Translations under genes and position numbers: made by a program
Origin: Ascidia mentula
Lineage: Eukaryota; Chordata; Ascidiacea; Phlebobranchia; Ascidiidae
Direction of reading: 5' to 3'
DNA length: 64,000 nucleotides
NCBI GenBank assembly: GCA_947561715.1
Contig: OX387200.1
Span: forward strand, 13,022,501 to 13,086,500
Notes under the pieces: generated by a model
The model's input: the letters and a program-made list of their open reading frames with translations, nothing else
Databases searched by the model: none
What the model was told of the DNA's origin: nothing
Shown here: piece after piece, positions 670-49,574 of the stretch
Layout: the number at the start of each line of letters is the position of its first letter
How positions within the stretch are numbered: the first letter of the stretch is position 1

Positions 670-1052
670 TACCCTATTTTACGGACCATAAAGCGCACCC
701 GATTATAAGGCGCACTGTCAATAAATTGCTTTGATTAGTTTTTTGTTCATACATAAGGCGCACCGGGCTATAGAACGCAACGTATTTTAAGGAGTATGGA
801 TTACCGTATAAAGCTCATTAAACAAAAACTTGTTACGTAATAAATGTAGGCAAGTCACAAAAGTATGAATATCATAGTTGCTAGTTGCTTTTACCGTAGT
901 TTATTGTGTAAGACGGTGATTTATTTATAATAGTATCGGTACTTTTGAGTGTAGGCACTAAAGCACTACTTGATCCATACATTAGGCGCACGATCAATTT
1001 ATGAGGAAAAAAAAGAATTTAAGTTGCGCCTTATGGTCCGTAAAATACGGTA
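670..1052. mobile_element. Inverted-repeat MITE of about 380 bp
   Basis: The left end begins TACCCTATTTTACGGACC and the right end reads the same on the reverse strand (TACCGTATTTTACGGACC). The inverted repeats run about 27 bp and contain the recurring word AAGGCGCA. No coding capacity. No convincing target duplication was read, so the superfamily is left open. It sits inside the hAT element at 61-1682. Confidence 0.7.
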
Positions 1053-3042: not shown

Positions 3043-11235
<8,193 letters not shown>

Positions 11236-32687: not shown

Positions 32688-35600
32688 CTATGACTCCACT
32701 AAAGTGTGCCATCTGCTAACAACTTTTCCTTTAGCTTCTCTCATTTCCAACCAATGCTGTTCATCTGATTCACTGCTGCTGTTTTGTCCAAGGGAAATCC
32801 ATCCAATCATGAACTTACGTTTTATTGTTCGAGAGCAGTGAACACTGACCATCAGAGACACTTCAGCAAGTTGGAACAGTGCAACCTGTTAAATTCACAA
32901 AAAAATGTCAAGAAAACACAAACTGAGTGTGGCCGAAGAAATGGTAAGTGCAAGTTTCAGAATTGTAAAACATCACTATTTTTGCAACCTGAAAGTAAAA
33001 GGTTTCCTTAAAAACAGGATTTGGTTGGGAGCGTCGAACAGTTGTTTTGCTTTGGGCCATTTCCTGACATGTAGAGTTGAGCAAAACTATTTTGACATAG
33101 GTATCTAAAAAGTTCATTTTTTAAATTCATCAGAGTAGTTCAACTTTACAACCAAGAACATAGTTTACCAGGAGGTTTAGACATCGCCAAATTTCTGAAG
33201 TGTGAACCCTTGACCACTTCCACACATAATCTTCCGGTCATTTCGTTGTATGACAAAGACAACAGGAGTTCAGGTAAACTGCCCCCATGAGTTAGTGTTG
33301 ATATAGATGACATGTCTGTTTCACTCTGTGATGCTGCAGAATCTGGCTCACTCCTCTAAAACAAAACAAATTTTTAATAATGGTGCCTATATAATGCATA
33401 TTTTGTGATAATCACATACATTTACATCCATCCTTGGCTCTAGCTGTAGGGTTACAGTCAACTGAGGATCTTTGATAAGATTTAACTCATCAAAACGAAC
33501 TGTTGCCTCACCAATCAACCTATCTTTCACCTGTCAATAATGACAACATTGCATTTGTTATATTTCTCACCATTGTGTTGTTTTTTCACAAAACTTGAAG
33601 TTAACCTTTCCTATTCCATAGAGACGCAACCTGAGACCTAGGCCTTTCAGGTCTTCTGGTGAAATTTGTGACAACTTGAATGTTTCAGCAAATCTTGGAG
33701 AGTTTATGTGCTGTACTTTAGTTTTGTATCGCTTTCTTTTCGTTGGAAGAACAACCAACCGAACCTGTCCAGAGCATAAAAAAACCATACAAACATTGAA
33801 CTTTTTTAGATTGAGGTTAACTTACTTGGATAATGCTTGCACCACCCCTGTCTTTAGAAGGAAGGTCGTTTGCTTCAACTATAGTTATCTGCACCTTTCT
33901 TTCAGAAACTGAATATTGAAGTGCAATTTCAAGTGTACCACAAGCGGAAATGGGAATGTTGCTTGGTGAAATTGTTAAGTCATCATCATCATCATCATCA
34001 GGTCTTGATGGTTTAACTGCAACAGCTGCTGCTATTTCATCCTTAACATAAATTTCATTGGTTTTATGCAGCTGACATGTTTTATTCTTTTATTTACCCT
34101 TGAACAGTAAAACAGCATATTTTTACTTTAATCCTTCTTTTTCATCTGCACACATTAACAGAAACTTGTTTAATATATATAGAACTTTGACAAACAAAAT
34201 ACCATGCAATATATAACTCTACAACTTTGCAATTACTTGTTCTAAAGTAGTATTTTTTCATACTTGCATGATTTGGTCAGCTTTGTGCTGTCTTTCATCT
34301 AAGTTAATGTTCCATTCTACATCATTGCTATTTCCTGGACTTGGTGAAACTGAGACAGGACTTTCAACCTTAAATGTGATATTGACATTTATATGAGGTA
34401 AACATTAAAAAGAAACAGGCACAGCTTTAATTGCACTACAAGTTATTATTTTACATTCAATGTAATCTTTACCAAAAATACAACTGTATAAAACTGTAAA
34501 TTCTGTGTATATTTTAATTTTGATAACATTTACACTACATATAGTTTATAAATTGCCCTAACACTAATTTCAGATATTAACTTTAATTAAAAGACATGAA
34601 AAATGTTTTTTTAAAAAAAATAATTCAGGACATTTCATAACTGGAACAAATTTACATGTATTGAACAAAAAATATTGTTTTGAACTACCTGATCTTTTGA
34701 AGTTAAACTGGTAAGCGAACTTCCCAAAGAAGATGCTGACATATCGCCTGGAGTCATTGACACACTTCTTTCTGTTTTAAATTTAAAACATTGTCTGAAC
34801 TGAAAGTCTATATTTCTGTAAAACTTCACTGTTGTTTGGTACTCAGTATCGGGTACCCAACGGACGTTGACCGCAAGGTACCACAAAGTGGAAATTAGTG
34901 TGTCCGCTAGTATAAAAACTAGCACAGTGCCACTGTCAACAGCTGCACTGATGAGACCTTGCAGGTCGAAACAGTGTGTGTACACACCCTGTCTGCAGCT
35001 CTCCAATATTATGGCTTTTTTTTGCATATATTTCACAACAATCTTTGTGTATTTGTTATAATGGTGAAAATTTCACCGAGAAAAGCCGATATTTAGACAA
35101 AATAAGTATTTTAGGTTCCCTAAACTACATATAATAACCTGCTTCTTAGACTAGGTTTAAAGGGTTTTATGATAATAATAATAATAAATATAATACCTTC
35201 ATAAACACAGTTATGAGTATTATTGCATAAAATGGAAATCTTACCTACACCATGGGTGTCAAATAATTTAGTGCTTTACATAATTACACACCCAGATTCA
35301 GACAACTTTACAAATAATATTACATTGGCTATTTTTATTTACATTTTATTTGTTGCACTGCAGCCTTAAGACAAACCTGCTGAAGAAAATTTTTGGTGGG
35401 GTGATGAACTGTTGAGTGACATTTGTGATCTTCGAATAGATTTTTGCATGTGACGAATAGTTTCCTCATCACTGTCTGAACTGGAATCGCTGTCGCCAGA
35501 GTCAAAGGAGTTGGCTGCAAAAATTGGCAGGTACATTTGACATGACTTTAAAAACAGAGTTTCCACATGACTGGCCAAAAGAAATGCTGTAGCCTTGTTA

Positions 35601-41859: not shown

Positions 41860-49574
<7,715 letters not shown>

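What the first reader, a model, noticed from the sequence alone, without database searches (positions are those of the whole stretch)
34941..35000. Complete type I hammerhead ribozyme in a dispersed repeat
Every element of the hammerhead fold is seen: both core segments (CTGATGA and GAA), a perfect 7-bp stem I, a 4-bp stem II, a stem III closed by a self-complementary hairpin, and a GTC cleavage triplet ending at 34993. Hammerheads are known from satellite DNAs, retrozymes and Penelope-like elements. A short unit of about 165 bp with the ribozyme at its 3' end would be a small non-autonomous ribozyme-bearing retroelement. It lies antisense to SYT14.
Basis: partly seen in the sequence, partly recalled or inferred. 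Interest (0 to 1): 0.85.

Follow-up and report, generated by a model that had tools for sequence, protein, structure and literature searches.

The report
Sea squirt retrozyme with hammerhead ribozyme
A self-cutting RNA motif in a sea squirt genome belongs to a tiny jumping element, and the scars left where copies inserted resemble those of a larger jumping element in the same genome, which points to the enzyme that may move it.

Summary
The hammerhead is real and complete at the stated coordinates. A strict type I descriptor finds it once in the window and 0 times in 300 random windows. Rfam does not confirm it: nothing at gathering score; the type I hit has E 0.17 and a permuted type III hit E 0.018 over the window. 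The repeat is a 212-bp, 5'-truncated copy (34826-35037) of a metazoan non-LTR retrozyme whose unit is 291 bp, not 165 bp. A second, diverged family (284-bp unit) has a copy at 46053-46267, minus strand. A strict core pattern occurs 1469 times in the genome, the reversed control 0 times. The mitochondrial code shows an ascidian host. In the younger family, 24 of 28 insertions examined join two cDNAs head-to-head, and 21 of these 24 start one cDNA at unit position 14-33 and the other at 43-60; 34 of 54 insertions of both families share >=8 bp across their ends, null 2.9%. Penelope-like elements in the same genome end at two sites ~38-40 nt apart. This supports the published suggestion that Penelope-like enzymes move animal retrozymes. 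Cleavage, circles and the partner are not shown.

The parts
34826..35037 (+). Family A retrozyme copy: unit positions 122-291 then 1-43, 5'-truncated, one-sided insertion
   Evidence: blastn with the natural 291-bp array unit repeated, 87% identity
34941..35000 (+). Type I hammerhead ribozyme; predicted cut after C34993
   Evidence: sequence, descriptor scan with null, fold
34941..34947 (+). Stem I, 5' strand (pairs with 34994-35000)
   Evidence: sequence
34948..34954 (+). Core CTGATGA
   Evidence: sequence
34955..34967 (+). Stem-loop II GACCTTGCAGGTC
   Evidence: sequence and fold
34968..34970 (+). Core GAA
   Evidence: sequence
34971..34993 (+). Stem-loop III and GTC cleavage triplet ending at 34993
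   Evidence: sequence and fold
34994..35037 (+). First ~43 nt of the unit after the cut; holds the region where most family A copies end (near 40, fewer near 17)
   Evidence: end positions of copies
46053..46267 (-). Family B retrozyme copy (unit positions 116-284 then 1-47), one-sided, 5'-truncated
   Evidence: blastn with the natural 284-bp unit repeated (as locus L031, 95%); genome matches
46092..46144 (-). Hammerhead of the family B copy; stem I carries an A.C mismatch, so probably weakened; not found by the strict descriptor
   Evidence: sequence; descriptor

Best explanation
The feature is a decayed, 5'-truncated copy of a metazoan non-LTR retrozyme in an ascidian. Source loci hold tandem units; a multimeric transcript is cut by the hammerhead into monomers with 5'-OH and cyclic-phosphate ends, which a host RNA ligase closes into circles (inferred from the published retrozyme pathway, not shown here). 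A Penelope-like element (PLE) protein, reverse transcriptase plus GIY-YIG nuclease, takes the circle or an uncut multimer as template, nicks both strands of an AT-rich target about 12 bp apart, and primes one cDNA from each strand at two internal sites just 3' of the ribozyme cut, about 18 and 49 nt in family B. Each cDNA runs through the ligated or uncut junction and often round the unit more than once. The two cDNAs meet and are joined, giving a head-to-head array flanked by a target duplication; if only one end is primed, the copy is single and 5'-truncated, like the window copy. Shown by sequence: units, ends, target duplications, junction crossing, and two-site ends in resident PLEs. Inferred: cleavage, circles, and the PLE protein as the agent.
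For: Seven identical 291-bp units and one of 293 bp in locus L027; one identical 284-bp B unit cut-to-cut at 4 loci, or in any phase at 9 locus ids, two of which (L045, L046) overlap. 1469 exact core matches, reversed control 0. Strict hammerhead descriptor: 0 hits in 300 random windows. Enforcing the hammerhead costs 1.4 kcal/mol in the A and in the B unit and 5.2 in the window copy. Of 54 non-redundant insertions, 34 share >=8 bp across their ends; shuffled pairings give 2.9% on average, 13.2% at most in 500 rounds; the 34 have median 12 bp and AT 0.78 against 0.63 in flanks. Template 3' ends inside unit positions 1-60: 30 of 33 in A and 49 of 52 in B, counted by me from the table (about 20% expected if uniform). 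B two-sided insertions: 21 of 24 have one end at 14-33 and one at 43-60, none has both ends in one of these ranges (the ranges were set after seeing the data). All 37 A and 54 B segments that start in 1-60 pass through the cut junction; 18 of 43 A and 29 of 63 B segments exceed one unit (duplicated loci not removed). A self-cleaved linear monomer could not template these. Resident PLE: RVT_1 5.6e-10 and GIY-YIG 1.2e-6 in one frame. PLE 3' ends fall in two groups, 57-70 and 96-105 nt past the PLE hammerhead-like cut in one family (42 of 47 matches used), and 75-81 and 114-126 in the other, with one at 155 (43 of 44 used). PMC11167929 (parts 1-2 of 4 read): a PLE protein starts reverse transcription at two adjacent internal sites and cuts and extends both strands. 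PMC3846280 (passages): inverted pLTRs, an optional 31-bp tail on one of them, target duplications of 8-10 bp.
Against: No RNA data and no cleavage assay. Rfam score is below gathering. Family A does not follow the one-of-each rule: of 7 two-sided A insertions 2 fit, 2 have both ends at about 40, 1 has both at 12-24, 2 cannot be classed. 3 of 24 B insertions do not fit as computed; one of them (L056) looks like a fit by eye. PLE pairs as printed: 17 of 22 have one end of each kind; of the other 5, one is a true same-kind pair. No sequence is shared between retrozyme units and the PLE tails held beyond embedded or decayed retrozyme-like fragments (L063, L070, L081, L091) and chance-level matches of 8-14 nt, so no partner PLE is named. 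20 of 54 insertions share no stretch of 8 bp or more. The shared stretches were sought up to 11-12 bases inside the element, so some may include element letters. No loop-loop contact was identified next to the uninterrupted 7-bp stem I. Loci were the best-scoring of 40 candidates per search, not a random sample.
Confidence: 0.78

Rival explanations
1. Retrozyme moved by a LINE-type enzyme; the head-to-head copies come from twin priming.
For: Target duplications of ~12 bp and variable 5' truncation are also typical of LINE products (LINE features recalled). Family A two-sided copies follow the two-site rule in only 2 of 7.
Against: In twin priming (recalled) the outer end of the inverted part lies at a variable internal site. 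Here 45 of 48 outer ends of two-sided B insertions lie within unit positions 1-60 (counted). I saw no poly-A tail in the ends printed, by eye.
Confidence: 0.1
2. Satellite DNA: tandem repeats spread by unequal exchange or DNA circles, with the ribozyme as a bystander.
For: Exact tandem arrays exist; newt repeats with a hammerhead were first seen as satellite DNA (PMC7229834).
Against: Dispersed single or partial copies with target duplications and ends at fixed unit positions in the 60 loci examined, and 1469 cores in the genome.
Confidence: 0.04
3. Type III (permuted) hammerhead with a cut at the GTC ending at 34938.
For: RF00008 at 30.4 bits, E 0.018 for the window, lower than the E of the type I hit.
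Against: Below gathering; it needs a stem I without a loop (deleted in the alignment), and the upstream GTC is absent in the array units (GTGCCACTCAACAG).
Confidence: 0.02
4. Inert fossil: the window copy is real but the family is dead and no longer makes circles (not exclusive of the main reading for the past).
For: Window copies are truncated, 87% (A) and 95% (B) identical to array units; window B stem I is mismatched.
Against: 21 of 52 B segments over 100 nt are >=99% identical to the array unit, and one identical full unit recurs at several loci, so B moved recently.
Confidence: 0.1

Closest known systems
Metazoan non-LTR retrozymes (Cervera and de la Pena 2020, PMC7229834; parts 1-4 of 6 read)
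   Same: Type I hammerhead, unit in the 170-400-nt range, tandem and dispersed copies, highly self-paired RNA by prediction, target duplications longer than 4 bp, PLEs in the same genome; GC 0.48, under the paper's 50% though over the 45% of its figure legend
   Different: Ascidian host (tunicate, ascidia, Ciona, urochord: 0 occurrences in the main text); two families in one genome; two start sites and head-to-head two-sided insertions, not described in the parts read
Penelope-like elements with minimal hammerheads (PMC11167929 parts 1-2 of 4; PMC3846280 passages)
   Same: Insertion footprint: two start sites about 30-40 nt apart 3' of a hammerhead cut, both strands primed, inverted head-to-head copies, short target duplications
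   Different: The retrozyme has no RT or nuclease, a 4-bp or longer stem III instead of a 2-bp one, and starts about 18 and 49 nt past the cut, against 57-126 nt in the PLEs here (one match at 155)
Plant LTR retrozymes (PMC4918200; search listing and abstract start only)
   Same: Hammerhead-bearing non-autonomous retroelement with circular RNA
   Different: Type III ribozyme in LTRs and 600-800-nt circles, as described in PMC7229834; here type I, no LTR seen
Didemnum vexillum hammerhead annotations (PMC8704543, passages)
   Same: Type I hammerheads in an ascidian (9 loci by homology)
   Different: No repeat, retrozyme or mobility analysis in the passages seen

Membership tests
Type I hammerhead ribozyme | Conserved core CUGANGA ... 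GAA ... NUH with three helices, open at stem I | tested here: met
Type I hammerhead ribozyme | Rfam covariance model above gathering score | tested here: not met
   type I hit RF03152 32.5 bits against 56.3
Type I hammerhead ribozyme | Self-cleavage after C17 | not testable with these tools
   Needs transcription and magnesium assay
Type I hammerhead ribozyme | Loop-loop contact between stems I and II (canonical form) | tested here: inconclusive
   Stem I is an uninterrupted 7 bp with no obvious loop 1; three-dimensional contact not modelled
Metazoan non-LTR retrozyme | Tandem units of ~170-400 bp each with a type I hammerhead | tested here: met
   291-bp and 283-284-bp units
Metazoan non-LTR retrozyme | Dispersed copies with target duplications longer than 4 bp | tested here: met
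   34 of 54 share >=8 bp, null mean 2.9%
Metazoan non-LTR retrozyme | Expressed as circular and linear RNA | not testable with these tools
   No RNA data
PLE-mobilised element | Two internal RT start sites about 30-40 nt apart | tested here: met
   B: about 18 and 49 in 21 of 24 two-sided insertions; A only in part: ends mostly near 40, fewer near 17, and 2 of 7 two-sided insertions use both
PLE-mobilised element | Both target strands primed, head-to-head copies | tested here: met
   24 of 28 B insertions and 7 of 26 A insertions are two-sided
PLE-mobilised element | Shared template sequence with a resident PLE | tested here: not met
   No shared PLE stretch in 30 GIY-YIG loci nor in L092 and L093
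Penelope-like element (the retrozyme itself) | Encodes RT and GIY-YIG nuclease | tested here: not met
   The unit is 284-291 bp, too short for either domain

The most novel reading that the evidence does not exclude
Animal retrozymes are the short parasites of Penelope-like elements, as SINEs are of LINEs. Each two-sided insertion records two cDNAs, one from each nicked target strand, begun at two start sites ~31 nt apart just 3' of the ribozyme cut on a circular or multimeric retrozyme RNA. The hammerhead's role is then to make a template that is endless and carries the PLE start region in every unit.
Probability: 0.68. Interest if true: 0.72.

Novelty: new member of a known kind. Interest (0 to 1): 0.57.

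Why it matters
Who moves animal retrozymes is open: the papers seen name PLEs as candidates from co-occurrence, tandem copies and shared hammerheads (PMC7229834 part 4; PMC7761336 passages). The footprints here make that testable. The same genome holds young retrozymes and PLEs with long open frames, so a purified PLE protein can be offered retrozyme circles and the start sites mapped against positions 18 and 49. It may also add tunicates to the hosts: the searches listed no tunicate retrozyme paper, but most of the papers listed there were not opened.

Tried and rejected
Rfam RF00163 over the genome: no match, but its controls also stayed silent, so uninformative. Type III reading: rejected (see rivals). 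The CTGATGA..GAAA motif at 7075-7098 (+): by eye it lies in an open frame among EGF-like repeats just after an AG; neither descriptor finds it; taken as chance (EGF by eye, no Pfam run). Search for hammerheads in PLE loci first failed because I asked for too strict a motif; found after loosening. Sequence identity between retrozyme and PLE tails: none beyond retrozyme-like fragments (L092 and L093). Viral contigs (exact pattern) and phage records: no match. PDB by sequence for the PLE protein: none. Covariation A against B: for one A and one B row of the unit alignment, 63 pairs without gaps, 8 compensatory, 13 one-sided, 38 unchanged, 4 broken; modest support, no null run. Pfam accession PF26215, recalled as a PLE-linked domain, is not in the library. 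No covariance model of my own was built.

Rows left out before counts; segments of 30 nt or less and clusters within 30 bases of a locus end (the L027 array among them) were dropped before the 61 clusters; 7 duplicates by flank were then removed; of 47 matches, the three full-length array matches and two matches to the next unit's start were left out (42 used); of 44, the query's own place was left out (43 used).

PLE pair count in full: one search printed 22 divergent neighbour pairs, 17 with one short and one long end. Of the 5 others, three (C52:1044341, C52:21056270, C69:12189715) lie inside longer arrays, so at least one listed end is not an outer end; one (C1:10292925) has an outer minus segment of the long kind at 10292739; one (C67:6425556/6429574) is a true short-short pair. 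Three of the 17 (C1:10199754, 10212284, 10218941) look like copies of one insertion. In the 17, one end at 255 (C69:19641380) was counted as short.

Full report
OBSERVATION. Read directly, 34941-35000 holds a 7-bp stem I, CTGATGA, a 4-5-bp stem II, GAA, a stem III of 4 bp plus a mismatch plus 5 bp, and GTC ending at 34993. Alone it folds so at -21.1 kcal/mol, z -1.42, 16 of 200 shuffles as stable. A strict descriptor with all three stems gives 1 hit in the window and 0 in 300 first-order random windows; a relaxed one gives the same hit and 1 in 300. Rfam does not reach gathering; permissive hits are RF03152 (type I) 32.5 bits, E 0.17, and RF00008 (permuted) 30.4 bits, E 0.018 for the window.

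HOST. COX1 on contig C79 reads glycine at AGA/AGG under code 13 and serine under code 5 at sites that I recall as conserved glycines. This is the ascidian code. Nine contigs above 15 Mb among those seen, and 196 Mb in all, fit my recollection of Clavelina lepadiformis; the species was not tested, only its lineage looked up.

FAMILY A. The window copy with flanks has 77 matches in the genome from only 40 of 1759 candidates scored. Locus L027 holds seven identical 291-bp units and one of 293 bp, cut site to cut site, on both strands. Against that unit the window copy spans 34826-35037, positions 122-291 then 1-43, 87% identity. So the copy is truncated, crosses the cut site, and the unit is not 165 bp.

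FAMILY B. A second exact core at 46114-46137 minus led to a second family: 117 matches from 40 of 2220 candidates, unit mostly 283-284 bp with a few shorter ones; one identical unit stands cut-to-cut at 4 loci and in any phase at 9 locus ids, two of which overlap. One A and one B unit are 59% identical over 271 aligned positions. GC is 0.48 in both. The pattern CTGATGAGACCTNNNAGGTCGAAACAGTG occurs 736 times forward and 733 reverse; reversed control 0.

INSERTION FOOTPRINTS. Using tetramers of the natural units as queries, I mapped the ends of copies in L001-L060: 61 clusters, 54 after removing duplicates by flank. Shared stretches of 8 bp or more across the two ends: 34 of 54, against 2.9% on average and 13.2% at most in 500 shuffled pairings; the 34 have median 12 bp and AT 0.78 against 0.63 in flanks. 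Many copies are head-to-head: minus on the left, plus on the right, so that both outer ends are template 3' ends (24 of 28 B, 7 of 26 A). Of the 24 B insertions, 21 have one end at 14-33 and the other at 43-60; none has both in one range; three are out of range (L033, L052, L056), of which L056 looks like a fit by eye. The ranges were set after seeing the data. One-sided B: 18, 46, 47, 52. Family A: of 7 two-sided, 2 fit, 2 have both ends near 40, 1 has both at 12-24, 2 are unclassed; of 19 one-sided, 16 end at 33-52, two at 13 and 16, one at 265. 5' ends of one-sided copies are spread over the unit.

TEMPLATE. Every segment starting in 1-60 goes on through the cut junction (37 of 37 A, 54 of 54 B), and 18 of 43 A and 29 of 63 B segments are longer than one unit (duplicated loci not removed). 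The longest B segment is 970 nt, 3.4 units; the longest A one, 1164 nt, is cut by the length of the query and lies in the L027 array. A monomer that has cut itself and stayed linear would stop after at most 60 nt. The template was a closed circle or an uncut multimer; these data do not tell which.

RESIDENT PLEs. GIY-YIG matches 134 places, many in long open frames, in tandem and head-to-head arrays; some may be cellular genes. One frame has RVT_1 (5.6e-10) and GIY-YIG (1.2e-6). The 3' regions of several carry minimal hammerhead-like motifs, by my reading with a 2-bp stem III. With one PLE 3' region of each of two families as query, matches end in two groups: 57-70 and 96-105 nt past the cut in the first (42 of 47 matches used), 75-81 and 114-126 in the second with one at 155 (43 of 44 used). 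Neighbouring divergent pairs: 17 of 22 as printed have one end of each kind; the other five are explained in Tried and rejected, one being a true exception.

KNOWN MECHANISM. For an Anolis PLE, purified protein cuts and extends both strands at AT-rich targets and starts reverse transcription at two adjacent internal sites, matching the genomic 30-40-bp tail (PMC11167929, parts 1-2 of 4 and passages). In a rotifer, PLE copies show inverted pLTRs, an optional 31-bp tail on one of them, target duplications of 8-10 bp, most often head-to-head (PMC3846280, passages). So the one-tail arrangement is known for PLEs. That paper also proposes self-priming on an antisense template for the inverted copies, which differs from the two-strand priming proposed here. 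For retrozymes, PLEs are named as likely movers from co-occurrence and shared hammerheads (PMC7229834 part 4; PMC7761336 passages; PMC11722881 passages). The listings and the passages read show no report of the tail footprint in retrozymes; most listed papers were not opened, and subscription papers and preprints are not held.

WHAT IS SHOWN AND WHAT IS NOT. Shown: motif, families, copy number of a strict core, ends, target duplications, junction crossing, PLEs with a two-site end pattern. Not shown: cleavage, RNA circles, which PLE acts. No PLE sequence is shared with the retrozyme units in the loci held. The family A exceptions show that the two-site rule is not strict. Enforcing the hammerhead costs 1.4 kcal/mol in the A and B units and 5.2 in the window copy, so the window copy may be slow even where the family is active.

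CONTEXT. C2-domain matches lie on the minus strand at 32911-33120 (over cut-off) and 33570-33821 (below cut-off); the retrozyme is on the plus strand upstream of these, consistent with an antisense intronic position, which was not tested further. The gene name was not tested.

Noticed in passing
L074-L078, L092, L093 (own genome): Penelope-like elements, some with open frames of about 800-890 aa, in tandem and head-to-head arrays, with minimal hammerhead-like motifs (2-bp stem III by my reading) in the 3' region.
   Followed up: partly
L081:486-760: A third, degenerate retrozyme-like family beside a GIY-YIG locus: B-like blocks in order and a hammerhead-like core with a weak stem II. Its longest exact match to B (22 nt, unit positions 16-37) lies between the two B start sites.
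   Followed up: no
L063 and L070, about 944-995 (-): Decayed hammerhead related to the retrozyme ones, near a GIY-YIG frame.
   Followed up: no
window 7075-7098 (+): CTGATGA..GAAA with a 4-bp stem II in an open frame among EGF-like repeats; probably chance.
   Followed up: partly
L027:2419-2650: Junction of an inverted retrozyme array made of short fragments around the hammerhead, possibly a repair or template-switch joint.
   Followed up: no
L003, L027 and L032 units: The block CACAAAGTGGAA is kept between families A and B outside the ribozyme, while the units are 59% identical overall; a possible protein or RNA contact site.
   Followed up: partly
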